NCBI GenBank assembly: GCA_022844135.1
Contig: JALHMG010000018.1
Location: 1 to 64,000, forward strand
Direction: 5' to 3'
Origin: Lysobacterales bacterium
GTDB taxonomy: Bacteria > Pseudomonadota > Gammaproteobacteria > Xanthomonadales > SZUA-5
DNA length: 64,000 bases
The notes below the pieces were generated by a model, which was not told the origin of the DNA, made no database searches, and saw only the letters and a program-made list of their open reading frames with translations. Shown in pieces: positions 37,997 to 52,540 of this stretch (the first letter of the stretch is position 1; each line of letters starts with the position of its first letter). A program made the translations under genes and the position numbers.

Positions 37997-38198
37997 GATG
38001 GGTTTCCAAGGAAGTGGAGTTTGGGGACGAACCTAACGGATCAAGAGTCAACCGCGTGAGAATCTGGGTCATTGCGCGGGGGCGTTCGCGCTGCAGCAGC
38101 CATCGATCAACCGACCTGTCGCAACGGACCGTCTTTCCGGCCAAAGCATTTCACACCCCCGCTATGCTGTGTCGCATCGACAGCGGGTGGATGGTTCT

Positions 38199-39482: not shown

Positions 39483-39654
39483 AAAGTTGGATCGTGATGC
39501 CGACGAATCAGACAGCTATCCACGGGCCGTAACCCATCGATCCGCCGCTGCAGTCGCTGCCGCATAGATGCGGATATGAAACGCAACAATGCTTGCAAAT
39601 CGAAAACTGCTAAGCCATTGTCGATTTAGGACCGACGATCTGGCGGGGGCGTCG

Positions 39655-41088
39655 ATGCATCACGCGGTGATGATTTCAAGCACGTACAGCGATCTCAAGC
39701 GGATGCGGCAAGTTTTGATCGACGCCGCAATCAAGGCTGGGTTCTATCCCAAAGTCATGGAGTACAACGACGGCGCGGTCAACGCCAGCGCGCTGACCAA
39801 TTCCTTAGCCATGGTGAACGACTCGCATGCTTATGTGCTGCTGATCGGTCGTCGCTACGGTCAGCGCCCGGCATCGCCCAGCAATCCCCAGAACTTGTCC
39901 ATCACCGAACTGGAGTTCAACGAAGCCATTCGGCTGAAAAAGCCCGTGAAGTTGATCCTGCTCAGCGACACGTACCCGACTGGTGTCGGCGATCAACTCC
40001 AGACGGACATCGAAAGCCTGAAAGCCTTCCGTCAGCGCGCAAAAACCCTGGATGGCAATGCTGGCGAGCATCGAATCTACAAAGTGGTCAACACCAAGCA
40101 AGAGCTGTCGGACGCGGCCCGCGATGCGATGCGCGATTTGGCTGATTACCTTCGAATGCAGCCCAAGCGGCCGGTCGCAATGCCGACGCCAGCGTCGGCT
40201 GAAACACCCAGCGATCCAAGCGCAATCGCCCAATTCGAATCCGCAGTCCGCATCTTGTTCGGAGCGGAGGGTCCTCTACACAGTTGGAAGAGAATCGAGC
40301 GCGCAAAAGCCCCATCTGTTTTGCCGGCCTCGGTGCAGATGGCGTTGACCAACCCCGATCGAGGTTTGGGCGATCGGCTCAGCAGAATCGTCAGGCACGA
40401 ATTGACCGGCGCTTTGGCCGACGACCTAAGGACCTACCGATTCACACTGTCGCCCAAGGGCCGTGTGGAAGTGCACATGTGCCTGGTGGATTGCATGGAT
40501 GCCGCCATCAAGTTGTGTATGGACCCGGTCAAGCGCGGTGCGTTGCAGCAGATGCGCCAGGGCCTGTTGCACGTGCCTGCCCAAATGATTCCTGGCAGTG
40601 CTCTTGCGTTGAGACTCAGGCCCTTGGACGGCCTTGAACTGAAGCCGAATAGCCCGAATCGTGCTTTAAGCGCAAAACACGTCGCAGAGTTTGGGTTGGA
40701 GGTAGGGCTTGGCGATGACGCCAATTTCAGCCTCGCCAGTCTGGTTTGCTCGATACCGTCCAGTCGCAATCCGGAAGGCCGCGTGATATCGATCAACTCT
40801 GAGCGCGACGTCGAAGAATGGCGCGGCTTTCTGCTCGACGAACGAGGGCAGGGACGGGAGCGTCTGCTGGTTCTAGCACTGGAATTTGGCAATGCCTTGG
40901 GCGATACCGCCATTGCCTGGTTAGATAAGTTTGGCGTCAAGACAGTGCTGCTGGCCGGAGACACGGGCGGCACTTTCTGGTGGTTAGAAGAAAGCGTGCT
41001 CGTGGGACGGGTTAGTGGCTTTATCGAAGATGCCAACGCAATCCTTGGTGACGCTATTCAAGGGGCGAAATTGCAGGGGGCGTTGTAG
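39655..41088 (+). CDS. DUF4062 protein sharing a C-terminal domain with the next gene
   Basis: Residues 1-110 form a DUF4062 domain (MISSTYSDLKRMRQVLIDAA, SHAYVLLIGRRYGQRP, ITELEFNEAIRLKKPV). DUF4062 is a Rossmann-like module found at the N-terminus of NACHT/STAND proteins such as animal NWD1 and TEP1, and in bacterial conflict proteins. After a Pro-rich hinge near 170-190, residues about 195-470 align with the C-terminal half of the kinase encoded next. Shared elements are an LFG..GPL..W start, RxVRHExT, a VDCMDAAIKLCMDP / VSCMDVAIQLCIDP pair, a GxGxDAxFxxA stretch, and a final WLxxFGVKTVLLAGD / WLCDLHILVIKLDG strand pair with F(S)FW following. I prefer the ATG at 39655, which has GCGGGGG upstream, over the longer frame from 39589. 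It is the first gene of a co-directional island. The domain calls are firm; the role as an effector or signalling component is inference. Confidence 0.82.
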   Translation: MHHAVMISSTYSDLKRMRQVLIDAAIKAGFYPKVMEYNDGAVNASALTNSLAMVNDSHAYVLLIGRRYGQRPASPSNPQNLSITELEFNEAIRLKKPVKLILLSDTYPTGVGDQLQTDIESLKAFRQRAKTLDGNAGEHRIYKVVNTKQELSDAARDAMRDLADYLRMQPKRPVAMPTPASAETPSDPSAIAQFESAVRILFGAEGPLHSWKRIERAKAPSVLPASVQMALTNPDRGLGDRLSRIVRHELTGALADDLRTYRFTLSPKGRVEVHMCLVDCMDAAIKLCMDPVKRGALQQMRQGLLHVPAQMIPGSALALRLRPLDGLELKPNSPNRALSAKHVAEFGLEVGLGDDANFSLASLVCSIPSSRNPEGRVISINSERDVEEWRGFLLDERGQGRERLLVLALEFGNALGDTAIAWLDKFGVKTVLLAGDTGGTFWWLEESVLVGRVSGFIEDANAILGDAIQGAKLQGAL

Positions 41089-42722
41089 TGAACGCAAGTG
41101 ACGCCGAAGGGAACGAGATGAACCGAACGCCCGTTCGTTCTGAATCGGTAGCGGCTTGGACGAGGTTTGAATCATGGTGGCTAAAGCCAGACGATTCACC
41201 TGTCGATCACAGCGGACAGGCTCATATCGATTTTCTCTATGATCAACCGCGCGCAGAGGCGAAAGTTGTGGCTGTGCGCAAGCAAATGAAGGTGTTTACA
41301 GATCGCGCTCGTTTTTTACGCGAGATGCAGCTCAATCGACAGTTCTTTGCAGGTGACTTGTTTCTCGCCGGATCTGATACGCACGTTGAAAAATGCTGGA
41401 TGGTTTTGCGCTATCTGTCGGGCGGTTCTCTACGGCAACGCTTTAGTTCGCGCCGTAGAATTCCAGACTGCCAAGCGCTACTGCGAAAGATCGCTCAATG
41501 TGTGGACAAAAACCTGTCGTTGAACGTTCTGCATCGCGATATCAAGCCCGAGAATCTGATGTTTGAAGGCCCAGGCGACGACGACAGGCTTTACTTGATC
41601 GATTATGGCATGGCGGTCGAGGCCGGAAAAGTGGGCGCCGAAACCGCCGCCCCCGAAAATGGTCGCGTTGGCACGCCGGCATACATGGCACAAGAGCGTC
41701 GCAATGGCGAACCGGCAAGCGTTGCGACAGAGATACGTGAGTTCGTAATCACCGCGATCGAAGTTGCACGATATTGTGGAAATTTTGCGCTAGCAGCCCA
41801 GTTCGAGCAGACTTCACCGGATGCGCGGCATGGATTCGACAGCGCCGAAGCTCTGTTGGATGCGGTCTTCATCAGGTCGGGCGGTGGTCCCGATGCCGAG
41901 TTGCTGGCGAAGTTCTGGTGTATCGCGGAGCGCCTGTTTGGTCCGAAAGGACCACTCGGAGCTTGGCAAGGGCAAGGACTGCTGCCCAGAATTCGTTCGC
42001 TTCTCAGCTCCAGTCATCCAAGAAAGGCGCCGAGTCTTGTACGATTTGTTAGACACGAAGTCACCAGCAAGCTGATTGGCGATATCAAGGACAGTCGAGT
42101 TTCTCTCTCTAAATCGCAACTTGGTAACATCGCTGGCGAGCTGGTTTCCTGTATGGACGTTGCCATTCAACTGTGCATAGATCCACAGCGTCGTAATGAG
42201 TTGATAGCTTTCAAGAATGCGCTGATAGAAGATCCGGACCAGACCGCACCCCTCCAACTCCCGGTGGAAACCAGGATAAGCGCCATTGTAGCGGTGCGTG
42301 GAGTCACGCCTGTACATGGGCAGCACCTAAGCGAGACGGCAGATCAAGAACTAGAGAACGGCGCCGGCGAAGATGCTCGCTTTGGATTTGCCGAGTGGGT
42401 TATTCAAAGACTGATCGCTACAACGCCGCTCGGTAAGCCAATTTCCGTGCGCAGCCCGGAAGAATACAAAACCTGGAAAGGGAAATTTGCAGACGATCAG
42501 GCTGGTGGGAAAAGCCGAATATTGGTTCTGAGAAGTGACGAGTATGACAAACTCGGTTCTCAGAAAATCGGATGGCTATGTGACTTGCATATCCTGGTTA
42601 TCAAGCTGGACGGGGCCGGAAGCTCATCGTTCTGGCAAATGAACGAACATCGGATGAATGCCACGGTAACTAATTTTGTGGATGATGTTAAGGAATTGCT
42701 GAAAAAGGCCGAAACCCAATGA
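41088..42722 (+). CDS. Divergent protein kinase with the same C-terminal domain as its neighbour
   Basis: The N-terminal ~215 residues are a protein kinase: LREMQLN (helix C), YLSGGSLRQRF, HRDIKPENLMFEG (149-161), LIDYGMAV with DYG instead of DFG (172-174), and GTPAYMAQE. A standard glycine-rich loop is hard to find (HSGQAHIDFLY lies in its place). HRD, DYG and Asn are present, so activity is likely. Residues about 276-540 are paralogous to the C-terminal half of the preceding DUF4062 protein (ERLFGPKGPLGAW, RFVRHEVTSKLIGDIKD, SCMDVAIQLCIDPQRRNEL). GTG at 41088 overlaps the previous stop by one base; ATG at 41118 is an alternative. The gene ends in ATGA with the MoxR gene. By eye its codon use is less GC-rich than the flanking housekeeping genes, suggesting transfer. 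Confidence 0.85.
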   Translation: MNASDAEGNEMNRTPVRSESVAAWTRFESWWLKPDDSPVDHSGQAHIDFLYDQPRAEAKVVAVRKQMKVFTDRARFLREMQLNRQFFAGDLFLAGSDTHVEKCWMVLRYLSGGSLRQRFSSRRRIPDCQALLRKIAQCVDKNLSLNVLHRDIKPENLMFEGPGDDDRLYLIDYGMAVEAGKVGAETAAPENGRVGTPAYMAQERRNGEPASVATEIREFVITAIEVARYCGNFALAAQFEQTSPDARHGFDSAEALLDAVFIRSGGGPDAELLAKFWCIAERLFGPKGPLGAWQGQGLLPRIRSLLSSSHPRKAPSLVRFVRHEVTSKLIGDIKDSRVSLSKSQLGNIAGELVSCMDVAIQLCIDPQRRNELIAFKNALIEDPDQTAPLQLPVETRISAIVAVRGVTPVHGQHLSETADQELENGAGEDARFGFAEWVIQRLIATTPLGKPISVRSPEEYKTWKGKFADDQAGGKSRILVLRSDEYDKLGSQKIGWLCDLHILVIKLDGAGSSSFWQMNEHRMNATVTNFVDDVKELLKKAETQ

Positions 42723-43669
42723 AAATCCCCGATTACTCAGCAACTCAGCTCGTTTTGCCCGCTATGTCTTCCTGGCCAGCGTCTGTGCACCTTTTCGACT
42801 CGCAGCAGCGGCTGGCCTTGCGGGCCGCGGAGGCTGCGGGAAGGCCGCTGTTGGTACGCGGCGATCCAGGCACTGGCAAGAGCCAGCTTGCGCATGCGGC
42901 GGCCGTGGCTGCGGGGCGTTTGTTTTTGCCTGTCGTGGTCGATGCGAACACGGAGTCTGGCGATTTGCTGTGGCGCTATGACGCGGTCGCGCGCTTGGCA
43001 GATGCGCATTTGAGTGGCGTTCCCGGCGGCGAGGGCAAGCGCAGTTTGTCGGCGAAGAATTACGTGCAGCCTGGGCCATTGTGGTGGGCTTTCGACTGGG
43101 CGAGCGCCCTAGAACAGAACGGCTCGCTTGAAGCTGCGCCAGCTGCGCCAGTCGCGCCAGATAACTGGTCGCCTCAGCGAGGTAGTGTGGTGTTGATCGA
43201 TGAGATCGACAAAGCTGAAGCCGAGCTACCGAACGGGCTGTTGGAAGCGCTGGGAAATGGCGGCTTCCACGTGCCTTTGGTGCCAACGACAGTGCGGCGG
43301 CCGACGGCACTGCCAGCGCCGTTGGTCATCATCACCACTAACGAAGAACGAGAGTTGCCGGCGCCATTTCTGCGCCGCTGCCTGGTGTTGAATCTGAAGC
43401 TGCCGCAGGGTGAGGCTCTGAAGCAGTTCTTGGTGGCGCGTGGCCGTTTGCATTTCCCAGAACTCGCAGCAAGTAGTCCCGAATGCCTGCAGCAAGCGGC
43501 CCAAATGCTGCTGGATGATCGGCATGCTGCGCAGGAAGCGGGCGCCTACCTGCCCGGTTTAGCCGAGTATTTGGATCTCTTGCGCGCGGTGCAGCAAATT
43601 GATCCGGAGAATCCGCTCGCACTATTGCAAGAGGTTCGGCGCTTTGTGTACGTCAAACACAGTGCTTAA
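42719..43669 (+). CDS. MoxR-type AAA+ ATPase
   Basis: MoxR ATPases are AAA+ machines that usually act with a vWA partner to remodel or activate client proteins. The 316-residue product has Walker A GDPGTGKS (48-55), the MoxR-type SGDLLWRYDAVARL insertion, Walker B VVLIDEIDKAE (157-167), sensor 1 IITTNEERELP and a double-arginine finger (FLRRCLVL). Length fits the family. It overlaps the kinase stop by 4 bases (ATGA) and lies 42 bases before the FGE gene. No separate vWA gene is next to it. In predicted MoxR-based conflict systems the ATPase is encoded beside effectors and sensors, which fits this position. Confidence 0.92.
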   Translation: MKIPDYSATQLVLPAMSSWPASVHLFDSQQRLALRAAEAAGRPLLVRGDPGTGKSQLAHAAAVAAGRLFLPVVVDANTESGDLLWRYDAVARLADAHLSGVPGGEGKRSLSAKNYVQPGPLWWAFDWASALEQNGSLEAAPAAPVAPDNWSPQRGSVVLIDEIDKAEAELPNGLLEALGNGGFHVPLVPTTVRRPTALPAPLVIITTNEERELPAPFLRRCLVLNLKLPQGEALKQFLVARGRLHFPELAASSPECLQQAAQMLLDDRHAAQEAGAYLPGLAEYLDLLRAVQQIDPENPLALLQEVRRFVYVKHSA

Positions 43670-43711
43670 GCGTTGCATTGCAGCGATCGCTGCGCCGGAT
43701 GAGCCTCGGAG

Positions 43712-46591
43712 ATGAGTCGTCGGGAACCGCATGCCGTTGAGCCGCCGCGTCTGCATCGCGCCGGCATATGGCGTGGCCATCTCCTGCGAGCGCTTGACAA
43801 TGAGCGCCATTTCTCAAGCGGCGCAGCGGCCGTGATCGCGCTCGAGGCGACGGAGCTGGCGTTGCTGTTCGGCTATGGGGTCAGAGCCGACATTCCAGAG
43901 GTCAGACCACAGGAATACAAGTTGGAGCCGGCTGCCGAGACACCAGCGGAGACAGCCGCCGCGCAGACCGTCGAGAAGCCCAAGCTGCGCGCAACGATGT
44001 ATCAAGTGACCCAGGTGCCAACCAACAAGGAGTCCGCTGATTCCGCTCAGCCAGCACCGATTCCCCTGGTGAAGCTGCCGCTTGCCGATAGGAAGCTGAA
44101 ACCACCTATCCAGCGCTTGTTGGTGCCCGACGCACGGCTTGCGGCTTTTGTCCGGCGCAACCTGAGGCAAGGCAAGCCGGGCAATCAGATCGATCTTCTA
44201 CGCTGGATCGCTTTGGTGGCGCGTGCCGAAGTGCCAAAGCGCCTGCCAAAGCGGATGCGGAATAAGTGGGGTGCTCATTGCGCTGTGATCGTCAACAACT
44301 ACGGCGATTGCGAGCCCATCCGCGAAGATCTGAATCAGCTCGTCCAGGTGGTGCAGTTGCGCTCGGGCGGCGCGACGCCGATTTATCTGCTGGATCCCGA
44401 AGGGCAACTCTGGCGTCGCAAATCAGCAAAGGCAACAGCCGGGAGCGCTTGGCGTGAATGCGCGCCAGACACGCCGCTGCAGCATCGCCATTGGCTTTGG
44501 GCAGGCGCCGATCCATGGCATGAGCCGCTTTCGAACTGGCGCGATGCACTTGCAGCCAAAGCGCGCGGCGCTGGCGTGACCTGGCTAACGCTGGCTGCCG
44601 CAGACAGCGCAGCGCTGCCTGGCGCGAAGCGCGTCACGTGGGAGTTCGCCGCAGCGTTGCGCGTGCAGCGCGGACCAGCGGCCGCTGTCAAAGTGGAGCA
44701 GGTTGAGCGCCTGCTGACGGCCATGGCTTTCGCTATCCGGATCGAACCGGCGTTGTTGCGAGAGCTGCGGCTGCTATTGCGTTTGTCTGTGGCGACCGAG
44801 CTGGCAGCTTGGCAGCACCCCGACTCACAGTCTTGCCCGATCGCTTGCTGGCTAAGGCAGGACGCGATAGCGGCCAGGCGTGCCGCCGCGCTGCAACTTC
44901 CGGAGTCTCTGCGCACGGAAATCGCTCGCACGGTAGCCGGGCAGCACCACGCGCTATCGCCGCTGATACAGGCTGAAGAATCGGCTTTGGCCTCCGTATT
45001 GGCGCCCGGCGCGTGCATCGATCGCGACGGACAATTGTGGGCGAATATCGTGGCAACCTTGCGTGCCAACAACGCCCAAGCAGAAGACTGCGCCCGTTAT
45101 GTGCGGCGCATCCGCGCGCGCGCGCACCCAGAGTTCTGGCGGCAAAACGAAGCGATTGCCGAGGCGTGGCTGTTGAGCGAGCGAGATAGTCTGCAAGAGG
45201 GCGGCGAGCTGCCGGAGGGCATTTCGGGCGAGTTGGCGGCGCGTGTGTTGGCTGAAGACAGCGCCCACGCGCTGCGAAGCGACTGGAGCCTGGTTCAAAA
45301 CCGGGAGAGGCTGCAGTTAGTGCCTGGCGTGATCCGCCACAGGTTGGCGCGGCTGACGGTGGCTGGCAGTGGGATACAAATCGGACAAAACGGTTCTCTG
45401 CGGCGTGTTGCGCTGTCGCAAGGTGCCGGTCTGGGCGAGGCACAACTTGCGCCGATCATGCTCTGGCACGCAGACGAACGTATTGAGATTCTGCATGTCG
45501 ACCGCCCCGCCTGGGCTCAGGAATTCGGCCGCGACCGCGCGGGTGTTTACGCACTCACGCCAGCGTTCGCCGGTACGCAGGCGAAGTTCCACCTATTGCC
45601 ACCCGAGCAAGCCTGCACCGAAAGTCCGTTTCTGCGTGCAGATGAGGATCAACGCTGCATTGAATTTGTCCGTGGAAAGGTGCTGTGCCGGTTGGGTTTC
45701 GACCTGGCTTTCGGCGCCTTTGCTGAGCTGCAAATTGGCAAGGCCGTTCAGCGCTTTCGCTGGGTCTCGCCCGGCAAGTTTTGGATGGGCTCGCCGGACA
45801 ACGAGCCTGAGCGCGACAGCGATGAGGGCCCGCGTCACGTTGTGCGAATCAGCCAAGGCTTTTGGCTGGCCGATACCGCATGCACCCAAGCGTTGTGGCG
45901 GGCGGTGATGGACCAGAACCCCAGCCATTTCGAGGGCGATGAGCTGCGGCCCGTGGATAGTGTCAGTTGGCTGGACGCTCAAAAGATGTTCAAGCAGATG
46001 GCGGAACTGGGTTTACCGGGTGCGGATTTGCCCACGGAGGCGCAGTGGGAATACGCGTGCCGTTCGGGCACGCAGACGCCGTTTCATTTTGGCGCGCAGA
46101 TTGATCCCGGCAAGGCGAATTACGACGGCAATTTTCCCTATGCCGGCGGTGAAAAGGGCGAATATCGCGAGTGCACCGTGGCGGTGAAAGCGCTGCCAGC
46201 AAACGACTGGGGGCTGTTTCAGATGCATGGCAATGTGTGGGAGTGGTGCAAAGACGGCTTGCGCGATTACGTGGCGCATGGCGAAGCCGTGTCGGACCCG
46301 GAGGGGCCGCAAGGCAAGGATGCGCAGCGTGCGCTGCGCGGCGGCTCTTGGCTCAGCGACGCCGGGGACTTGCGCGCCGCCTATCGCAGCGCGTACTTGC
46401 CCGAGGGCCGGAGCGGCTACTGGGGCTTGCGTCTTGTCCTGAGGTCCACGAGCCCAGACCAGACCAGCGTGGCGGCGGAGCCGCCATTGAAGGCGCCTGC
46501 GGAGCAGGCGGCTGGGCTTGGCGCCGCTGGAGGCGGCGTCGGCCCGGCGGGACGCCGGGCCGGCAACAAGTCTGAAGGTGAGCATTCATGA
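43712..46591 (+). CDS. 959-residue protein with unknown N-terminal region and C-terminal FGE/CLec domain bearing a hypervariable block
   Basis: Residues 1-680 are unfamiliar. They contain an alpha/beta stretch at about 185-330 (CAVIVNNYGDCEPIREDLNQ, WLWAGADPWHEPLSNWRDAL) that could be a degenerate vWA-like Rossmann fold, then a long helical part. No signal peptide or membrane helix is visible. Residues about 683-910 are an FGE/SUMF1 domain (FRWVSPGKFWMGSP, GFWLADTACTQALWRAVM, LPTEAQWEYACR, MHGNVWEWCKDG, ALRGGSW). The stretch that aligns with the active-site cysteines of catalytic FGEs has none and is hypervariable relative to the next FGE gene (residues 881-903). The domain therefore looks like a ligand-binding C-type-lectin scaffold. 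The Ala/Gly/Pro-rich tail (904-959) is encoded by hairpins. The stop overlaps the start of a small ORF (ATGA). FGE fold certain, N-terminal region unassigned. Confidence 0.85.
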   Translation: MSRREPHAVEPPRLHRAGIWRGHLLRALDNERHFSSGAAAVIALEATELALLFGYGVRADIPEVRPQEYKLEPAAETPAETAAAQTVEKPKLRATMYQVTQVPTNKESADSAQPAPIPLVKLPLADRKLKPPIQRLLVPDARLAAFVRRNLRQGKPGNQIDLLRWIALVARAEVPKRLPKRMRNKWGAHCAVIVNNYGDCEPIREDLNQLVQVVQLRSGGATPIYLLDPEGQLWRRKSAKATAGSAWRECAPDTPLQHRHWLWAGADPWHEPLSNWRDALAAKARGAGVTWLTLAAADSAALPGAKRVTWEFAAALRVQRGPAAAVKVEQVERLLTAMAFAIRIEPALLRELRLLLRLSVATELAAWQHPDSQSCPIACWLRQDAIAARRAAALQLPESLRTEIARTVAGQHHALSPLIQAEESALASVLAPGACIDRDGQLWANIVATLRANNAQAEDCARYVRRIRARAHPEFWRQNEAIAEAWLLSERDSLQEGGELPEGISGELAARVLAEDSAHALRSDWSLVQNRERLQLVPGVIRHRLARLTVAGSGIQIGQNGSLRRVALSQGAGLGEAQLAPIMLWHADERIEILHVDRPAWAQEFGRDRAGVYALTPAFAGTQAKFHLLPPEQACTESPFLRADEDQRCIEFVRGKVLCRLGFDLAFGAFAELQIGKAVQRFRWVSPGKFWMGSPDNEPERDSDEGPRHVVRISQGFWLADTACTQALWRAVMDQNPSHFEGDELRPVDSVSWLDAQKMFKQMAELGLPGADLPTEAQWEYACRSGTQTPFHFGAQIDPGKANYDGNFPYAGGEKGEYRECTVAVKALPANDWGLFQMHGNVWEWCKDGLRDYVAHGEAVSDPEGPQGKDAQRALRGGSWLSDAGDLRAAYRSAYLPEGRSGYWGLRLVLRSTSPDQTSVAAEPPLKAPAEQAAGLGAAGGGVGPAGRRAGNKSEGEHS
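46352..46420 (+). other. Variable-repeat-like block 1 (candidate DGR VR)
   Basis: These 23 codons (CTC at 46352-46354 to TAC at 46418-46420) align without gaps to 47615-47683. Twelve codons differ, with 17 base changes, every one in codon position 1 or 2. The third base is unchanged in all twelve (C in ten, G in two). The 72 bases that follow are identical in the two copies, and the 57 before differ at one site. This is the pattern made by DGR mutagenesis of A residues in AAC-type template codons. Confidence 0.8.
46471..46561 (+). repeat. Array of four GC-rich hairpins with GGA loops, copy 1
   Basis: Four stems, each with GGA as the loop, follow the variable block: 46471-46485 (GGCGGC/GCCGCC), 46494-46510 (CGCCTGC/GCAGGCG), 46522-46538 (CGCCGCT/GGCGGCG with one G-T pair) and 46541-46561 (GGCCCGGCG/CGCCGGGCC, 9 bp perfect). 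They lie inside the coding tail of the FGE gene. In known DGRs a hairpin just downstream of the VR is needed for efficient retrohoming. Confidence 0.75.
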
Positions 46592-46776
46592 GCCTGCATT
46601 TTTTTGCCGTTCCTGCTTTGGATGGCGGCAGCGCAGAAGAGGCGCTGAATCGCTGGTTGTTCGCGCAACGCGTCGTCCAGATCGAGCGCCAGTTTGTCGC
46701 CGATGAGACACGCTCGTTTTGGGCGATGTGTGCCACCGTGATTTCAGGCGCTGGCCGGAAAGCGCGGGCGCCATGA
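46588..46776 (+). pseudogene. Truncated DGR-accessory-like ORF, copy 1
   Basis: A 62-codon ORF starts at an ATG overlapping the FGE stop (ATGA). It encodes SLHFFAVPALDGGSAEEALN followed by RWLFAQRVVQIERQFV and SFWAMCATV. From memory this matches the N-terminus of HRDC-domain proteins encoded between the variable protein and the reverse transcriptase in some proteobacterial DGR cassettes. Those proteins are far longer, so this one is truncated. The frame ends at the TGA inside the left arm of the inverted repeat at 46764-46829, whose insertion probably broke it. The identity needs a database search. Confidence 0.55.
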
Positions 46777-46829
46777 ATGGCGCCCCTACGGTTGCAAGGT
46801 CTCGTAGGGGCGCGATTCATCGCGCCCGG
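46764..46829. repeat. Pair of inverted REP-like palindromes (BIME-like)
   Basis: Two 27-base arms, 46764-46790 and 46803-46829, are inverted copies with three differences, separated by 12 bases. Each arm is itself a palindrome around ATGAAT/ATTCAT, of the form GGGCGC-n-ATGAAT-n-GCGCCC, and ends in CCTACG (or its complement). Two of the differences are C/G swaps that keep each arm's own pairing, so structure is conserved. Such CGTAGGGGCG palindromes are dispersed elements mobilised in trans. It lies exactly where the accessory ORF breaks off. Confidence 0.8.
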
Positions 46830-46900
46830 TGCGAGACCACGTCTTATGCCCAGTTGCCGAATGTTTCGTGCCGATTCGGTGGCACAACGTTGGGTCGACA

Positions 46901-47848
46901 ATGCCCGAGCCGCTAATGGATCGTTACCCCGAACCCTTTCCACCGCCGTGGGCCGACGCCTGGGGCGATGATCAATATGGGCTTTGGGCCGAATTCGAGA
47001 TCAATGAGGTGCGGCAGCGCATGCGCTGGATTGAGCCGGGTGAGTTTTGGATGGGCTCGCCAGACGATGAGGCCGAGCGCATCTCCGCGCGCGAGGGTCC
47101 GCGTCATTGGGTGCAGATCAGCCAAGGCTTTTGGCTGGCCGACACTGCGTGCACCCAAGCTTTGTGGCGGGCGGTGATGGACCAGAACCCCAGCCATTTC
47201 GAGGGCGATGAGCTACGGCCCGTGGATAGTGTCAGTTGGCTGGACGCTCAAAAGATGTTCAAGCAGATGGCGGAACTGGGTTTACCGGGTGCGGATTTGC
47301 CCACGGAGGCACAGTGGGAATACGCGTGCCGTGCGGGCACGCAGACGCCGTTTCATTTTGGCGCGCAGATTGATCCCGGCAAGGTGAATTACGACGGCAA
47401 TTTTCCCTATGCCGGCGGTGAAAAGGGCGAGTTTCGCGGCCGCACGGTGCCGGTGAAATCGCTGCCCGCGAACGACTGGGGCCTGTATCAAATGCATGGC
47501 AATGTTTGGGAGTGGTGCAAGGATGGTTTGCGCGATTACGCCCAGCGTGCGGTGACGGACCCGGAGGGGCCGCAAGGCAAGGATACGCAGCGTGCGCTGC
47601 GCGGCGGCTCTTGGGGCGGCTACGCCAGGTTCTTGCGCGCCGCCTATCGCGGCGCGGGCTCGCCCGAGCGCCGGGTCAACTTCTGGGGCTTGCGTCTTGT
47701 CCTGAGGTCCACGAGCCCAGACCAGACCAGCGTGGCGGCGGAGCCGCCATTGAAGACGCCTGCGGAGCAGGCGCTTGAGGCTGGCGCCGCCGGAGGCGGC
47801 GTTGTACCGGCGGGACGCCCGGCCGGCAAGAAGCCGGGCGGGCGTTGA
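46901..47848 (+). CDS. FGE/CLec-domain protein with hypervariable block, stand-alone copy
   Basis: The 315-residue protein is essentially an FGE domain. It has a short N-terminal segment with RYPEPFPPPWADAWGDDQYG, a style I recall from DGR-diversified FGE proteins, then FRW-like RMRWIEPGEFWMGSP, GFWLADTACTQALW, LPTEAQWEYACRAG, MHGNVWEWCKDG, and RALRGGSW followed by the variable residues 239-261. From about 47160 onward the DNA is nearly identical to the FGE part of the 959-residue gene. Upstream differences are mostly third-position, while within 47615-47683 they are never third-position. Cysteines of catalytic FGEs are absent there. I prefer ATG 46901 or 46916; the frame opens at 46829 inside the repeat. 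It probably arose by duplication of the first FGE module. Confidence 0.85.
   Translation: MPEPLMDRYPEPFPPPWADAWGDDQYGLWAEFEINEVRQRMRWIEPGEFWMGSPDDEAERISAREGPRHWVQISQGFWLADTACTQALWRAVMDQNPSHFEGDELRPVDSVSWLDAQKMFKQMAELGLPGADLPTEAQWEYACRAGTQTPFHFGAQIDPGKVNYDGNFPYAGGEKGEFRGRTVPVKSLPANDWGLYQMHGNVWEWCKDGLRDYAQRAVTDPEGPQGKDTQRALRGGSWGGYARFLRAAYRGAGSPERRVNFWGLRLVLRSTSPDQTSVAAEPPLKTPAEQALEAGAAGGGVVPAGRPAGKKPGGR
47615..47683 (+). other. Variable-repeat-like block 2 (candidate DGR VR)
   Basis: This is the counterpart of 46352-46420. The twelve differing codons are CTC/GGC, AGC/GGC, GAC/TAC, GGG/AGG, GAC/TTC, AGC/GGC, TAC/GGC, TTG/TCG, GGC/CGC, AGC/GTC, GGC/AAC and TAC/TTC (copy 1/copy 2). A template with A at each changed base, mostly AAC codons, explains both alleles. 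Every difference changes the amino acid. Confidence 0.8.
47734..47822 (+). repeat. Array of GGA-loop hairpins, copy 2
   Basis: The second FGE gene carries the same array: 47734-47748 (GGCGGC/GCCGCC), 47757-47773 (CGCCTGC/GCAGGCG), 47785-47801 (CGCCGCC/GGCGGCG, perfect here) and an imperfect stem around 47807-47822 (GGCG/CGCC core). The third stem differs from copy 1 by a change that restores a Watson-Crick pair, while the fourth has decayed. Confidence 0.7.
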
Positions 47849-47958
47849 TCAGCTTGCATTTGCGTGCCATCCCGGCACTCGATGGCAGCGCTGCATCGGA
47901 TGTGCTGAATCGTCGCCAAGTCACGGCTTGTTGGCGAATCGAGGCGCGGGCAAACTAA
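47845..47958 (+). pseudogene. Truncated DGR-accessory-like ORF, copy 2
   Basis: Beginning at a TTG that overlaps the FGE stop (TTGA), 37 codons encode SLHLRAIPALDGSAASDVLN and then an unrelated tail to a TAA. The first ~20 residues clearly match the start of the ORF at 46588, in the same position relative to the FGE gene. Homology is lost after LNR, so this is a second decayed copy of the same downstream gene. Confidence 0.6.
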
Positions 47959-47991
47959 CTTTTCTAAACTAAGTCCGTAGAGATGATCGCC

Positions 47992-48204
47992 ATGGACGTG
48001 ATCAATATCCACGACGCCAAAACGCAGCTTTCGAAGTTGGTGGAGCTGGCCGCCACTGTGCGGGAGTTCATCATCGCCAAAGCGGGTAAACCGATGGTGC
48101 GAGTGGTGCCGTACCACATTGAGGCGTTGCATCATTTGGGCGGCTTAAAGGGGCAGGCCGTCTTGGATTTGGACCTCAAGGCGGACTTTAGCGACGAGAT
48201 TTAA
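47992..48204 (+). CDS. Phd/YefM-family antitoxin, apparently orphan
   Basis: The 70-residue protein matches Phd/YefM antitoxins, which bind DNA and neutralise a partner toxin: VINIHDAKTQLSKLVELAA, EFIIAKAGKPMVRVVPY, then the LGGLKGQ and DFSDEI pattern seen in antitoxins paired with PIN toxins. The length is complete. ATG 47992 begins the family homology; ATG 47983 is also in frame. A toxin would be expected immediately downstream, but the next 60 bases hold no open frame before the convergent glycosyltransferase. The toxin has been lost or never arrived. Confidence 0.75.
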   Translation: MDVINIHDAKTQLSKLVELAATVREFIIAKAGKPMVRVVPYHIEALHHLGGLKGQAVLDLDLKADFSDEI

Positions 48205-48265
48205 GCGATGTTTTCAGGATCAGGCCGCGAAGCGACCTAGGACTAATTCCCGCGAATGTCTTGCC

Positions 48266-49429
48266 TCAGCGCAAATGCTCCTGAAGCCGCTCGGCGACGG
48301 TTGACCAATCGAACTGCGGGTCTCGCACGTGCGCCAATGCAGCGGCGCTGGCGGTGGTCCAATGCGGCTCGTGGTGCAGTTGCGTGAGCGCGGTAGCGAT
48401 GTCGTTGGGCTGCACCTCCACCATCCGCAGCGGCGAGATTGGTGTGCGTATGGGTCTTGCTGGCAGGCAATGCGCGTTCGTGCCCCACAGCTCGATCAGC
48501 GCGGCCTGTCCCGGCACGATTTGCGGCGCGCCGGTGGCGGCGTGTTCGAAGCTCACCAGGCCAAAACCTTCACCGTGCGCGGTGTTAATGCCAACACTGC
48601 ACGCGTTGTAGAGCGCGTTGAGATCGATGTCGCTGAGTGGCCCTGGGGTTTTCGGCCAGAACAGTACGCGATTTTGAATGCCGAGCGCGGCGGCCTGCTG
48701 GCGCAATGCATCGATGGCCGGTGTGTGTTCGATCGCGTGATGCAGGCACAGGTACGCGTCTGCGTGTGCCCTGGCAAAAGGCGCGAAACCGGCCAAGGTG
48801 AGATCGATGCGTTTGCGCGGATCGGGACGGGCGGCGTTGAGGATTACGAAGGCCGGTGCGTCGAGGCCAAATAGCGTTTGTGCCTGGCGTTTCTTCTCCT
48901 CAAGCGTGAGCGCGGTTGGTCGAAATCTCGAGCGATCGACGCCGTGCCCCGCAACGGCCACGGGCAGATCAAGATGCGCCTCGCGCGCAACCGCGCGCAC
49001 GTTGTCGGCGGCCGATTCGGTGTACGTGACCAGCGTGCTGAACGCGACCAGCGCTTCGATCCAGCGCGGGTCGTCGAGGATGCCGTCGATGGGCGCATAA
49101 CCCACCATCGGCACCGCGCCGCGCAGCGGGCCGAGCGTGTGCGTGTAGTGTTTGAGATACCAAAGATCGTTGAGCGCGAGCACCGCATCAGGCGCGAGTT
49201 CCTCCCAGGCAGCGGCGGCAGCATAAGCGCCAACCAGATCGCCACCGCGAAGGTTCGTAGGCAGAACTTTGACGCCCGGCATGGGTTCGAAGACATCGCC
49301 CTTGAAGCCGACGCCGTACCACGTGATGCGGAATTCTTGCGCCAGATATGGCAGCAGCGATTCCAGCACGCGCGTAAAGCCCGTGCCGGGTTTGTACCAG
49401 CCAAGCAGCAGCAGGTGGCGTTTCGTCAC
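48266..49429 (-). CDS. Glycosyltransferase family 4 (group 1) protein
   Basis: The 387-residue product has the GT-B fold: N-terminal LLLLGWYKPGTGFTRVLESL, a central GHGVDRSRFRP, VILNAARPDPRKRIDLTLAGF (start of the nucleotide-sugar-binding domain), and the retaining GT4 motif GEGFGLVSFEHAATGAPQIV with its EX7E glutamates. It would transfer a sugar from a nucleotide donor to an unknown acceptor. The start at GTG 49429 is chosen because the family begins there; the frame extends to 49519 through low-quality sequence. It stands alone; the nearest polysaccharide genes are 27 kb away. Confidence 0.85.
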   Translation of the reverse strand: MTKRHLLLLGWYKPGTGFTRVLESLLPYLAQEFRITWYGVGFKGDVFEPMPGVKVLPTNLRGGDLVGAYAAAAAWEELAPDAVLALNDLWYLKHYTHTLGPLRGAVPMVGYAPIDGILDDPRWIEALVAFSTLVTYTESAADNVRAVAREAHLDLPVAVAGHGVDRSRFRPTALTLEEKKRQAQTLFGLDAPAFVILNAARPDPRKRIDLTLAGFAPFARAHADAYLCLHHAIEHTPAIDALRQQAAALGIQNRVLFWPKTPGPLSDIDLNALYNACSVGINTAHGEGFGLVSFEHAATGAPQIVPGQAALIELWGTNAHCLPARPIRTPISPLRMVEVQPNDIATALTQLHHEPHWTTASAAALAHVRDPQFDWSTVAERLQEHLR

Positions 49430-49516
49430 GCTATCGAGTCTTCGGGTATGGGTTGTTGCCCTGAAAGGGAGGCAGCTCGGTTTGATGCAACGATCCCGGT
49501 CCGCCACTTTCGCGTT

Positions 49517-49600
49517 CACACGAAGACCGAAACCACGAAGAGGTCAGGATTCCCTTATGCGAGGAGACTTCGTGTCTTGATGTCTTCGCGGCTTCGTGTG
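49517..49600. repeat. CTTCGTG-rich interrupted inverted repeat
   Basis: The left arm (49517-49541) contains CACACGAAGACC and AACCACGAAGA, and the right arm (49567-49600) contains CTTCGTGTCTTG and CGGCTTCGTGTG. The arms are complementary in several blocks of the CTTCGTG word. Such tracts occur between genes in several bacterial groups and look like decayed small repeats. The whole gap 49430-49654 holds no gene. Confidence 0.5.
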
Positions 49601-49617
49601 GGCTGGCTTCGGGCACA

Positions 49618-49641
49618 GCCAGCGCCGCAAGCGGCGCTGGC
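49618..49641. terminator. Perfect 11-bp-stem hairpin downstream of the 178-residue gene
   Basis: GCCAGCGCCGC-AA-GCGGCGCTGGC forms a very stable hairpin 14 bases past the stop at 49655 on the minus strand. There is no T-run, so rho-independent termination is only possible; it may be an extra REP-like element. Confidence 0.4.
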
Positions 49642-49654
49642 GGCGCGCTGCGCA

Positions 49655-50191
49655 TCAGCTCCCCAACTGCACCGGCGTGTAAATCACGCCACCGTTGGGC
49701 TGTTTTACCGGATCGAGCAGCAGGGTTTGGATGCACTGGATGCCGGTGTCGCTGCTGGCGTCCATCGCTTCGAAACCAGGATTGCTGTCGCCATAGGTGG
49801 TGACGAAGGAATACGCGAAACCGCCCAGGGTGCCGCAACCGAACTGATTACCCAACTGCTCGATGGCGAGCAAGCCAACACCTGCCCCGTTTTCCTGCAG
49901 GAAGCTCGTCAGCGAGCCCTGTGGTTGATTGTCGAAGGTGACGCCAAGCGTGGTCACAATCAAGATGTCGCCGGGGCTTGCCGCCAGGGCTGGCGCCTGG
50001 TTGCCAGAAGCCTGAAACACATTAGCGACTACTTTGAGCGTTGCCGAGTCGAGCACCAGAAACCAATAGCCTTGCAGGCCTGGGTTCGTCGTCTGTTGGT
50101 TATAAGTGTTGGTTCCCACCGCGATGTTCGAAAACGGATAGCTGGACGTGGGCATGTATGAAAACAGCGAAAGCGGTACAGGTGAGGCCAT
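49655..50191 (-). CDS. Hypothetical protein, paralogue of the next gene
   Basis: The 178-residue protein has no recognised family. It shares with the 176-residue protein encoded upstream a core TFDNQPQGSLTSFLQENGAG, LLAIEQLGNQFGCGTLGGF, FVTTYGDSNPGFEA and a C-terminal QPNGGVIYTPVQL. It has no signal peptide; it starts MASPVPLSLFSYMPTSSYP after a GGAGA. A conserved single cysteine sits in the GCG motif, a second in the variable C-terminal part. The neighbours are tail-collar proteins and a giant adhesin, so a surface or particle role is conceivable. I do not assign a function. Confidence 0.7.
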   Translation of the reverse strand: MASPVPLSLFSYMPTSSYPFSNIAVGTNTYNQQTTNPGLQGYWFLVLDSATLKVVANVFQASGNQAPALAASPGDILIVTTLGVTFDNQPQGSLTSFLQENGAGVGLLAIEQLGNQFGCGTLGGFAYSFVTTYGDSNPGFEAMDASSDTGIQCIQTLLLDPVKQPNGGVIYTPVQLGS

Positions 50192-50296
50192 TGCAGTTCT
50201 CCAAGGTTGGTCAAAGCTGTGGCGCTGCAATCAACGGTATGGACGCGCTCTGCGCGCCCGGCACCGCAACGGATGCGGGATCTGCTGATCCGGTCG

Positions 50297-50827
50297 TCAG
50301 GCCAGCGCGATCGGTGTGTACATCACGCCGCCATTGGGCTGATTGACAGCCAGCAATGACAATGTCTGGATGGCAGTGTAGCCGGGTTGTACTTCGGTGT
50401 TGCATGCCTCGAAGCCCGGATTGGGGTCGTTGAGCGTGGTGACGAAGGTGTACGTGAACCCGCCCAGCGAGCCGCAGCCGATCTGCGTGGCCAACTGCTC
50501 GATAGCCAGCAGGCTCGTGCTTGCGCCATTGGCCATCAGGAAATTAAAGAGCGCGCCTTGCGGCTGGTTGTCGAAGGTGACACCGAGCGTTACGACCGCA
50601 AGCAGATACCCCGGGCCGCTGACACCAAAGTTCGGCACTGTGCTGCCGCTCTGCTCAACCGCGTTGAACACAACGTTGAGATTCGAGGCGTCCAGCACAA
50701 CGTACCAATAGCCTTGTTGATAGTTCGATAACTGTTGCGTCAATCGGTTGGTGCCGACTGCAATGATTCCAGCCGCATATTGTGCGGGTCTTGTACCCAT
50801 GACACTGATCGGAACGGTGTTCGCCAC
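50297..50827 (-). CDS. Hypothetical protein, paralogue of the preceding gene
   Basis: GTG at 50827 is preceded by a perfect AAGGAGG. The 176-residue product has TFDNQPQGALFNFLMANGAS, LLAIEQLATQIGCGSLGGF, FVTTLNDPNPGFEA and QPNGGVMYTPIAL, matching the 178-residue protein in the same order. Neither carries a signal peptide. The tandem pair must come from duplication. A strong ribosome site suggests abundant expression. Function unknown. Confidence 0.72.
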   Translation of the reverse strand: MANTVPISVMGTRPAQYAAGIIAVGTNRLTQQLSNYQQGYWYVVLDASNLNVVFNAVEQSGSTVPNFGVSGPGYLLAVVTLGVTFDNQPQGALFNFLMANGASTSLLAIEQLATQIGCGSLGGFTYTFVTTLNDPNPGFEACNTEVQPGYTAIQTLSLLAVNQPNGGVMYTPIALA

Positions 50828-50908
50828 GGCAACCTCCTTCGCGTTGTGTTATCGAAGTCTACAACTGCGAAATTGCGCTAACATGATTTTTTTCAGGAGG
50901 GACAGGGC

Positions 50909-51202
50909 ATGGGTGAGTTGCTGACGACGCTGCGGTTAGAGGACTTCAGCGCGCTGGTTGGGCGCACCATCGATGTGCAAATCGATGATCGTTTTGTCGC
51001 TTCGCAAGTTTTGGCCGCGCGCAAGGTGGGCGGTAGTTCGTTGCGTGAGGGCGGTGGATTCGCTGTCGATTTGCGGCTGCCGCTGCACACGCCTCGCCAA
51101 GGCGTTCTGCTGACGCGATTGCCGCAGGGTGAGGTGGGCATTTTCATGTCGCCGCGTAAAGTTGTCGGCGGGGAAGTCGAATACGAGGCAGTTTTCAACT
51201 GA
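50909..51202 (+). CDS. DUF6916-like small protein
   Basis: The 97-residue protein is preceded by CAGGAGGGACAGGGC, a strong ribosome site. It begins LTTLRLEDFSALVGRTIDVQ and is a small beta-rich domain (GGGFAVDLRLPLHTPRQGVL, GEVGIFMSPRKVVGG). I recall short proteins of this sort (DUF6916) encoded beside microcystin-dependent, tail-collar-type genes, which fits here. It is transcribed opposite to the rest of the cluster. Function unknown. Confidence 0.72.
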   Translation: MGELLTTLRLEDFSALVGRTIDVQIDDRFVASQVLAARKVGGSSLREGGGFAVDLRLPLHTPRQGVLLTRLPQGEVGIFMSPRKVVGGEVEYEAVFN

Positions 51203-51226
51203 TCCAGCACTCGCTGCGGTTGAACC

Positions 51227-51436
51227 TCAAGCGCTCGCTTCGCCGCGATGCGTTTTGCGGAAGATCGAAATAGAGCGTCTGCCGCGACCGGTGCCAACGC
51301 CGAGTTCCAGCACGCGACAGCTGCCCGCAGGCCGTGCGACTTCGCTGAGGCAGCCTGGGTCTAATAGTGGATAGAGCTGGTCGTAGATCGACGCGTTGCT
51401 GTCGCCATAACAGCAATCAGGCAGGCGCTCGGACAT
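51227..51436 (-). pseudogene. Broken class I SAM-methyltransferase fragment
   Basis: ATG 51436 overlaps the end of the GNAT gene by 20 bases. The first ~50 residues read like the start of a class I methyltransferase, with IYDQLYPLLDPGCL and motif I RVLELGVGTGRG. After GTGRG the sequence changes to a basic, unrelated tail and stops at 51227. The catalytic part is missing. The fragment is therefore the 5' end of a once-coupled gene cut off by a deletion; the convergent DUF6916 gene lies beyond the break. Confidence 0.6.
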
Positions 51437-51947
51437 TCGCCGCTCGCACCAGGAACTGATAAACGCCGCGGTCTTCCGAATGCTCAAAACCTAACCGCAG
51501 ATACCACGCCATCGCTGGATTGTTCGACTCGACGTGTAGCGAGATGCCGGCGCCAGAGCTTTCGGATTCGTCGATCAGTTCGGCCAACATCGCCCGACCG
51601 AATCCGCGTCCGCGACAGGACCGCAGCAGCGCGATATCCATCAGGCGAATGTCGCTGGCCGAACGAAATATGTAGACACGTCCAATGGCTTGCCCATCGA
51701 AAGCCACGAGCAAGCGGTCGGCGCCAACGTAGTTCGTCGAATAGTAGCTGTGCTGCTGATTGAACTGCTGCTGCAAGAAGGCCAGCTTGGCTTCCTCCGG
51801 CCATTGAACCGGCGCCAGTTCTTCATGCCGCATGTCTGCATAGAGGGCGGCCAAAAAAGGCAGGTCGCCATCGTCGATTGGCCGAAACGATAGCCCGTGA
51901 GGGCGCGCGGGATGGGCTGGAGTGAGGAAAGCGCGCGATTGCGTCAT
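51417..51947 (-). CDS. GNAT-family N-acetyltransferase
   Basis: GNAT enzymes transfer acetyl groups from acetyl-CoA to amines. The 176-residue protein has the family layout: an N-terminal strand FRPIDDGDLPFLAALY, the YNQ-like middle, LMDIALLRSCRGRGFGRAML (motif A, with the R/Q-x-x-G-x-G/A CoA loop as RGRGFG), and a C-terminal MAWYLRLGFEHSEDRGVYQF. The substrate is unknown. Its start overlaps the end of the preceding gene by 4 bases, which suggests a common transcript. Confidence 0.88.
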   Translation of the reverse strand: MTQSRAFLTPAHPARPHGLSFRPIDDGDLPFLAALYADMRHEELAPVQWPEEAKLAFLQQQFNQQHSYYSTNYVGADRLLVAFDGQAIGRVYIFRSASDIRLMDIALLRSCRGRGFGRAMLAELIDESESSGAGISLHVESNNPAMAWYLRLGFEHSEDRGVYQFLVRAANVRAPA

Positions 51948-52540
51948 GTGGTCTCGATCAGCAGTGCGTCGAAGTCGCGTGGTGAGCCATCGGCCAAACG
52001 CAAGTCCCGCTCGCCTGGGAAGTAACGCAAGTCCATCAACTGCGGCGGACGACCAGAGCTGGAACGGGCGCTGGCGAGTACGACCAAACTGCCGCCGGGC
52101 ACCTGTTCAGACCACGCGCTTCGGTTCGATGCTGATTTTTCTCCAAGACCGCGGACAGAACTGACGGCAACATGCGCACGTGCGCCCAATGGGAATTGCA
52201 TTTTGACGGGATTGCCCGTCATGCATTGATGCGCCGATCTGGAGAGATGCCACGCCATAATCACGCGTGTGATGCCGCCACTATCTGGCAGCGACAAATC
52301 GACGCTCCAGGTTTTCAGGCGGTTGTCTGACGGTGTCTCGTCCGGCCAGAACTTGCGGATGTGAATCGCGGAAATCGGAGCGTTGGCCTGCGTCCGGACC
52401 TCAATCGGAATGAATGCGGAAGACTCTTGAAACGTCGGCGCAGCGCTGATCGTTCTCGTAGAGAAGGTTGCGCCTGCCGGTCGGCTCAAGCCGGCAAAGG
52501 CAATGGCCCCACCAGCCCCGATCACGCTGCGACGGTTCAT
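51944..52540 (-). CDS. Hypothetical exported protein with Tat-like signal
   Basis: I start this gene at the ATG 52540, which follows GAGG. The 198-residue product begins MNRRSVIGAGGAIAFAGLSR, a twin-arginine-like signal. The mature part is beta-rich (FIPIEVRTQANAPISAIHIR, WSVDLSLPDSGGITRVIMAW, CMTGNPVKMQFPLGARAHVA). The pattern has features of secreted sulfur-carrier or thiosulfate-oxidation-type beta sandwiches (SoxY/SoxZ), but I cannot confirm this. The longer frame from 52651 adds an unlikely basic N-terminus. Confidence 0.6.
   Translation of the reverse strand: MNRRSVIGAGGAIAFAGLSRPAGATFSTRTISAAPTFQESSAFIPIEVRTQANAPISAIHIRKFWPDETPSDNRLKTWSVDLSLPDSGGITRVIMAWHLSRSAHQCMTGNPVKMQFPLGARAHVAVSSVRGLGEKSASNRSAWSEQVPGGSLVVLASARSSSGRPPQLMDLRYFPGERDLRLADGSPRDFDALLIETT

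What the first reader, a model, noticed from the sequence alone, without database searches (positions are those of the whole stretch)
46352..47683. Diversity-generating-retroelement footprint: two FGE genes differ almost only at codon positions 1 and 2
Between 46352-46420 and 47615-47683, 12 of 23 codons differ through 17 substitutions. All lie in codon positions 1 or 2, none in position 3, and every one is non-synonymous. The next 72 bases are identical and the 57 before differ once. Elsewhere in the same genes the differences are mostly third-position (for example GAT/GAC, ACC/ACT, GCA/GCG). Ordinary drift or selection leaves third-position changes; DGR mutagenesis of template adenines in AAC codons gives exactly this pattern. 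A single template with A at all changed sites explains both alleles. Two adenines, in TAT and GAG, are shared by both copies; DGR mutagenesis is incomplete, so this does not conflict. The block sits in an FGE/C-type-lectin domain at the site where DGR targets vary and where catalytic FGEs carry their cysteines.
Basis: partly seen in the sequence, partly recalled or inferred. Interest (0 to 1): 0.95.

Follow-up and report, generated by a model that had tools for sequence, protein, structure and literature searches.

The report
Frozen remains of a gene-diversifying retroelement
Two neighbouring sensor-like genes carry the scars of a machine that randomises chosen letters of a gene; the machine was not found in this bacterium, but its sister species still carries the template, which predicts 16 of the 17 letters that differ.

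Summary
The only other genome of the genus held (G001) keeps, at the syntenic site, a template repeat rich in AAC codons beside the C-terminal end of a DGR-like reverse transcriptase (RT). Sixteen of the 17 differing sites are adenines in that template (p about 1e-12), and the two window copies agree at 97 of 98 non-adenine sites. DGRs elsewhere carry templates in the same FGE/C-type-lectin domain at the same codons.

It is not a working DGR in this assembly. The two RTs found are a CRISPR-type and a retron-type one, and no template was found. Between the two targets lie a truncated accessory gene and a dispersed palindromic repeat instead. Three similar loci exist; two show the same scars.

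Best reading: relics of a DGR, laid out like clade 5A of Doré et al. 2024, that diversified the sensors of a MoxR-type conflict system and is now frozen. New member of a known kind.

The parts
39589..41088 (+). DUF4062 protein, first gene of the module; also the upstream neighbour of the remnant in the sister species
   Evidence: Pfam DUF4062 E 5e-18; sister copy 77% identical DNA over 590 bases
41088..42722 (+). protein-kinase-like protein, possible effector or signal part
   Evidence: Pfam Pkinase E 7e-14; PADLOC PD-T4-6 kinase model E 1.5e-18, mad6 E 4e-16
42719..43669 (+). MoxR-like AAA_5 ATPase directly upstream of target 1
   Evidence: Pfam AAA_5 E 1.6e-10; 'MoxR-like' is an inference from that and from the layout
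43712..46591 (+). target 1: long N-terminal extension without a Pfam match plus C-terminal FGE/C-type-lectin domain
46323..46446 (+). variable repeat 1 (stretch homologous to the sister's template); varied codons 46352-46420
46588..46758 (+). relic: first 57 codons of a DGR accessory gene
   Evidence: 46% identical over 52 residues, E 5e-12, to the ORF between target and RT in L043
46755..46835 (.). palindromic dispersed (MITE/REP-like) repeat where accessory 3' part, RT and template are missing
   Evidence: 19 matches in the genome, self-matches included; folds 5.65 sd below shuffles as DNA
46901..47848 (+). target 2: short FGE/C-type-lectin protein (frame listed from GTG 46829; ATG 46901 fits the sister's start)
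47586..47709 (+). variable repeat 2; varied codons 47615-47683
47848..47913 (+). second, 22-codon echo of the accessory gene's start after target 2
   Evidence: 59% identical to the first relic, E 7e-4

Best explanation
The two blocks are variable repeats of a diversity-generating retroelement that has since been dismantled. In an ancestor the locus most likely read: DUF4062 gene, kinase, MoxR-like ATPase, long lectin target, accessory gene, RT, template repeat, short lectin target. The RT copied the template RNA with errors at adenines and the cDNA overwrote both variable repeats, randomising about a dozen codons of each lectin domain while leaving third positions alone. Later the accessory gene's 3' part, the RT and the template were lost here, where a palindromic dispersed repeat now lies. 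The sister species lost most of the RT, the genes between it and the DUF4062 gene, and part of target 2, but kept the template. What remains in the window is two open, now probably fixed lectin-like sensors beside ATPase and kinase genes. Shown: the adenine match, the template, the RT fragment, the relics, the gene order. Inferred: overwriting by homing, the order of losses, sensing of ligands in a conflict system, and absence of RT supplied in trans.
For: 16 of 17 window differences lie at adenines of the sister's template (p 1.5e-12 over 124 sites; 1e-6 if only codon positions 1 and 2 are compared); each window copy departs from it at 16 and 19 of 26 adenines but at 10 and 9 of 98 other sites. 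The two copies agree at 97 of 98 non-adenine sites. RT C-terminal fragment beside the template: 22.3 bits against a DGR-RT profile, best of 500 shuffles 2.6. Accessory relic. dS 0 and dN 0.44 in the block against dS 0.25, dN 0.05 before it; same contrast at C7 and C5. The 17 sites match template adenines of unrelated bacteria 17/17 (L060), 16/17 (L109), 13/17 (L105), 12/17 (L042). Best structural and sequence match is TvpA, a DGR variable protein.
Against: No DGR RT or template found in the own genome. One of 17 differences is not at an adenine. Identity of the two copies goes on for 46 bases past the template-homologous stretch, so ordinary gene conversion or duplication also shaped the region. 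The C21 pair lacks the third-position signature (Fisher p 0.18). The RT fragment is short and its direct tblastn match is weak (E 0.006 and 3e-4); the accessory gene has no Pfam match.
Confidence: 0.92

Rival explanations
1. The variable repeats are still being diversified: an RT and template exist in the cell on DNA missing from the assembly, or are supplied in trans by a mobile element, or persist in other strains.
For: The genome is in 75 contigs; the two copies agree at 97 of 98 non-adenine sites, so the last overwriting looks recent compared with the divergence before the block. Doré et al. report RT-less loci diversified in trans or by coexisting intact variants.
Against: The C18 locus is contiguous and lacks both parts; RT searches of the whole assembly find only a CRISPR-type and a retron-type RT; no template for either backbone.
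Confidence: 0.2
2. Diversifying selection alone: the two lectin domains diverged by point mutation under selection at a binding surface.
For: All 12 codon changes are non-synonymous and fall in an FGE region that is variable in homologues.
Against: Silent divergence drops to 0 in the block (0.05 at C7 and C5, where it is above 1 before it) while protein divergence peaks; changes coincide with template adenines even among codon positions 1 and 2 (p 1e-6).
Confidence: 0.03
3. Gene conversion or recombination from other FGE paralogues brought in two different cassettes.
For: The genes share long near-identical stretches outside the block, and the genome has 13 FGE-family matches.
Against: No other place in the genome matches the block's backbone (the nearest, C21, has 3 mismatches in a looser pattern); conversion does not single out template adenines.
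Confidence: 0.03
4. The targets at C7, C5 and C21 arrived or were duplicated without machinery and were only ever served in trans.
For: No accessory or RT relic was found at these loci by tblastn; C7 and C5 share one block backbone although the sequence before it has diverged.
Against: Applies to those loci only; at C18 the accessory relic and the sister's template in synteny show that the element stood there.
Confidence: 0.4

Closest known systems
Clade 5A DGR loci, including DGR 8 of Thiohalocapsa PB-PSB1 (Doré et al. 2024, PMC10907252; outline, sections 6, 7, 13 and search passages seen)
   Same: ATPase directly upstream of a target with an undefined N-terminal extension and a C-terminal lectin domain, plus a short lectin-only target; TIR genes beside the C7 and C5 loci
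   Different: No RT or template detected in this genome; kinase and DUF4062 genes at the window locus; RT clade cannot be tested
RT-less or template-less loci DGR 4, 5 and 7 of PB-PSB1 (same paper)
   Same: Core parts missing, with MITE-like repeats in their place
   Different: There, RTs remain elsewhere in the genome or in coexisting variants; here none was found
Treponema denticola TvpA and its DGR (PDB 2y3c; PMC4891356, passages seen)
   Different: 35% identity; T. denticola has RT and template
VMAP ternary conflict systems with DGR-coupled FGS domains (Kaur et al. 2020, PMC7159879; section 25 and passages seen)
   Same: MoxR-type ATPase and hypervariable FGE-fold domain
   Different: No vWA or VMAP match in the five window proteins scanned
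Formylglycine-generating enzyme
   Same: Pfam family and fold
   Different: No cysteine in the block in either window copy; catalysis unlikely

Membership tests
Diversity-generating retroelement (complete) | DGR-type RT gene | tested here: not met
   Own assembly: two RTs, CRISPR-type and retron-type. Sister: C-terminal fragment only. So filed as remains of a DGR, not as a DGR.
Diversity-generating retroelement (complete) | template repeat in the same genome | tested here: not met
   Patterns for both backbones find only variable repeats
Diversity-generating retroelement (remains of one) | variable repeats differing from a template at adenines | tested here: met
   Template in the sister species at the syntenic site; 16 of 17 sites
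Diversity-generating retroelement (remains of one) | variable repeat at the C-terminal end of a C-type-lectin-fold target | tested here: met
Diversity-generating retroelement (remains of one) | accessory gene | tested here: met
   57-codon relic homologous to the ORF between target and RT in L043; HRDC type is recalled, no Pfam match
Diversity-generating retroelement (remains of one) | IMH/IMH* sequences at the 3' end | tested here: inconclusive
   Homology between template and window copies stops just after 46444; differences there could be IMH/IMH* but no motif was tested
Clade 5A-type DGR locus | ATPase upstream of a long target and a short lectin-only target | tested here: met
   Gene order against section 13 of PMC10907252
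Clade 5A-type DGR locus | RT in clade 5A | not testable with these tools
   RT missing; sister fragment of 108 residues too short
VMAP ternary conflict system | vWA and VMAP proteins beside the MoxR ATPase | tested here: inconclusive
   None in the five proteins 39589-47848 by Pfam; neighbours beyond were not scanned
Formylglycine-generating enzyme (catalytic) | cysteine pair in the block region | tested here: not met
   Neither block encodes cysteine

The most novel reading that the evidence does not exclude
Freezing is a stage in the life of such systems: a bacterium first randomises its lectin sensors with DGRs, then drops the mutator and keeps the selected sensors, turning an anticipatory repertoire into a fixed, inherited one. 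This genome would hold three, perhaps four, frozen sensor pairs, with kinase or TIR genes beside three of them, while its sister dismantled the same locus in the complementary way, so loss of hypermutation would be recurrent and perhaps favoured.
Probability: 0.3. Interest if true: 0.72.

Novelty: new member of a known kind. Interest (0 to 1): 0.6.

Why it matters
A DGR footprint was predicted from raw sequence with no RT or template nearby, and the missing template then turned up at the same place in a sister species, agreeing at 16 of 17 sites. So dead DGRs can be recognised from their targets alone (silent divergence near zero where protein divergence peaks), and surveys that start from the RT will miss such genes. 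Frozen sensor pairs also offer a natural test of what DGR-diversified sensors do once diversification stops.

Tried and rejected
RT candidates in the own genome: the C2 RT is the best match to the BPP-1 RT (E 1.8e-9) but its frame starts with a Cas6-like part (Pfam E 0.007, below the cut-off) and is followed by an ORF that I take for Cas1 from memory; the C1 RT scores best with the retron St85 model, though below its cut-off. The C24 hit (E 0.04) is a short frame of about 90 residues opposite a longer ORF and was judged chance (one search translated a different frame of the same place). The RT hit of the same family (G004, E 1e-37) reads like a group II intron RT by eye, and no template pair was found near it. 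The RT profile search used E 1e-15, so it would miss fragments: it did not report the G001 fragment. tblastn of 13 RTs on the window and 11 fetched loci gave only that G001 fragment.

Template finder: self-comparison for adenine-biased repeats over loci L041-L120, L020-L022, L130-L132 and window 38001-50000 found L109, L060 and L105. It also printed T-biased or short rows for L041 and L048, which look like tandem or dispersed repeats. It missed L042 (17 of 27 mismatches at adenines) and found nothing at L064 and L043, which have RTs. As a positive control it found pairs in 9 of 11 RT loci of the same order, with the threshold lowered to 60%. In L043 the middle repeat is only weakly adenine-biased (10 of 19 and 9 of 20 mismatches) and is not counted as a template.

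The accessory relic was not found in plasmids or, by confirmed match, in viral contigs. Rfam found nothing in 38000-52000. The C21 pair does not show the third-position signature. For the fold alignment A3, 39 of 46 candidate homologues were used; seven further copies from loci already represented were left out. The line for the window 'before VR' covers only 9 codons through a wrong start and is replaced. Ternary-system VMAP filing was considered and left open.
Full report
OBSERVATION. The two 69-base blocks differ at 17 bases in 12 of 23 codons: 10 at codon position 1, 7 at position 2, none at position 3, all non-synonymous; the 57 bases before differ once and the 72 after are identical. In the other aligned parts of the two genes 59 differences are at positions 1+2 and 56 at position 3 (Fisher p = 3.9e-5). 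In the block dS is 0 and dN 0.44; in 193 aligned FGE codons before it dS is 0.25 and dN 0.05; in 46421-46570 dS is 0.08 and dN 0.09. Silent divergence is lowest where protein divergence is highest, which selection alone does not readily produce.

GENES. The window is 1-64000 of contig C18 of an unnamed 5.34-Mb genome in 75 contigs, rated 99.8% complete. The order on the + strand is: DUF4062 protein, kinase-like protein, AAA_5 (MoxR-like) ATPase, long target with a C-terminal FGE domain, short FGE target. The short target's domain is modelled with mean pLDDT 95. Neither block encodes a cysteine.

OTHER LOCI IN THE GENOME. Of 13 FGE-family matches, three more loci (C7, C5, C21) carry paired, closely related FGE domains. 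At C7 and C5 an AAA_5 ATPase and a TIR protein stand beside them, at C7 with DUF4062 and TIR in one protein. The C7 and C5 pairs repeat the pattern: position counts [8,9,1] and [7,11,1] in the block (Fisher p 4e-4 and 1e-4); dS 0.06 and 0.05 in the block against 1.48 and 1.09 before it, with dN 0.44 and 0.48 in the block against 0.37 and 0.23. C7 and C5 share one backbone in the block although the sequence before it has diverged, as expected if one template wrote both. The C21 pair does not follow (17 third-position differences, Fisher p 0.18).

NO MACHINERY FOUND HERE. Pfam RVT_1 finds two RTs in the genome: one in a frame with a weak Cas6 match, one scoring best with the retron St85 model. 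The BPP-1 RT, searched up to E 1, finds the first of these plus one weak short hit that I judge chance. A profile of four DGR RTs, run on 299 genomes of the order with the own genome included, has a match at E 1e-15 in 25 of 299; in the own genome this is the CRISPR-type RT. Patterns with the variable sites left free find only the variable repeats. An RT on DNA missing from the assembly, or a small fragment below these cut-offs, cannot be excluded.

THE TEMPLATE IS IN THE SISTER SPECIES. The only other genome of the genus held (G001) is 88% identical over 3 kb of the downstream flank. There, between a DUF4062 gene and the same glycosyltransferase, lies a repeat that reads GGSWNNNARNLRAACRNANSPENRNNN and stands outside the target gene. 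A pattern with free variable sites matches it without mismatch; of 9 family genomes searched, only G001 and the own one match. Over 124 bases it has 26 adenines. The window copies differ from it at 16 and 19 of these but at 10 and 9 of 98 other sites (Fisher 2e-7 and 2e-10), and from each other at 17 sites of which 16 are template adenines (p 1.5e-12; 1e-6 if only codon positions 1 and 2 are compared). At the non-adenine sites the two copies share 9 differences from the sister's template and differ from each other once, so both seem to descend from one template of their own lineage. These p values treat sites as independent.

RELICS. Directly upstream of the template G001 has a 108-residue frame that a profile of 13 RTs matches in its C-terminal part (22.3 bits; best of 500 shuffles 2.6); by tblastn it matches the RT of the Lamellibrachia endosymbiont (L043) weakly (E 0.006 and 3e-4). 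In the window, 46588-46758 encodes 57 residues, 46% identical over 52 (E 5e-12) to the ORF that stands between the long target and the RT in L043, and a 22-residue echo follows target 2. I take this for the DGR accessory gene. HRDC accessory genes are described for the T. denticola DGR (passages of PMC4891356), but the HRDC name for the relic is from memory and Pfam gives no match for the L043 piece. Overlapping the relic's end is a palindrome that recurs in the genome (19 matches, self-matches included). So the window kept the targets and lost RT and template; the sister kept the template, the RT's end and part of target 2. L043 shows the order ATPase, long target, accessory, RT, repeat, short target, itself with a shortened RT.

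INDEPENDENT DGRS IN THE SAME DOMAIN. Of the 80 best homologous loci kept from a capped scan of public genomes, four carry a DGR-like RT by phmmer with the BPP-1 RT (L043, L060, L064, L109). L109 (Methylococcaceae) has RT, template and three variable repeats with 12/12, 14/15 and 16/16 mismatches at template adenines; L060 (a cyanobacterium) has 19/20; L105 has 15/15. L042 (Rhodocyclaceae), among the three closest homologues, has a template-like repeat (17 of 27 mismatches at adenines, p 7e-9) beside a transposase gene. The window's 17 differing sites fall on adenines of these templates 17/17 (L060), 16/17 (L109), 13/17 (L105) and 12/17 (L042).

MECHANISM. Shown: adenine-specific difference, template, RT fragment, relics, synteny. 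Inferred: error-prone copying of the template and overwriting of both repeats; later loss of the machinery; sensing of invaders by the lectin domains and signalling through the ATPase to kinase or TIR partners, as Doré et al. propose for such targets and leave to be tested.

COMPARISON. Doré et al. describe clade 5A loci with a MoxR-like ATPase upstream of a target with an undefined N-terminal extension and a second, short lectin-only target, with effectors such as TIR nearby, and, at other loci, RT or template replaced by MITE-like arrays (sections 13 and 7). The window fits this closely, in a decayed state; it is a new member of a known kind. Because a complete DGR needs an RT and a template and neither was found here, it is filed as the remains of a DGR. 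Paper searches for decayed, orphan or remnant DGR targets gave Doré et al. as the closest; the other papers in those lists were seen only as listings, except Kaur et al. (section 25 and passages).

Noticed in passing
G000:C7 (L020), G000:C5 (L021), G000:C21 (L022): Three more loci with paired FGE targets; C7 has DUF4062 and TIR in one protein, C5 a TIR protein and both FGE domains in one 1236-residue frame.
   Followed up: partly
G000:C2:119612-123235 (L001): CRISPR-type RT frame with a Cas6-like start and an in-frame TAA inside the RT part, followed by a Cas1-like ORF (Cas1 from memory).
   Followed up: no
G000:C1:5940-9581 (L002): Retron-St85-like RT of 326 residues.
   Followed up: no
window 1128-1862 (-) and 31667-32485 (-): Two further FGE-domain genes in the window, not of the paired type.
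   Followed up: no
window 49655-50230 (-) and 50297-50827 (-): Two similar small proteins in tandem beside the module; the sister species has such a pair too (L132 3579-4776).
   Followed up: no
L041 5064-5251 and 12211-12435: Repeats of about 80 bases stand near both FGE genes of this gammaproteobacterial contig, possibly MITE-like.
   Followed up: no
L042 104-1588: Transposase gene beside a template-like repeat and an FGE target, perhaps where an RT once stood.
   Followed up: partly
L074 4590-6137: Two tandem FGE copies with the same block sequence, unlike the DGR-type pairs.
   Followed up: no
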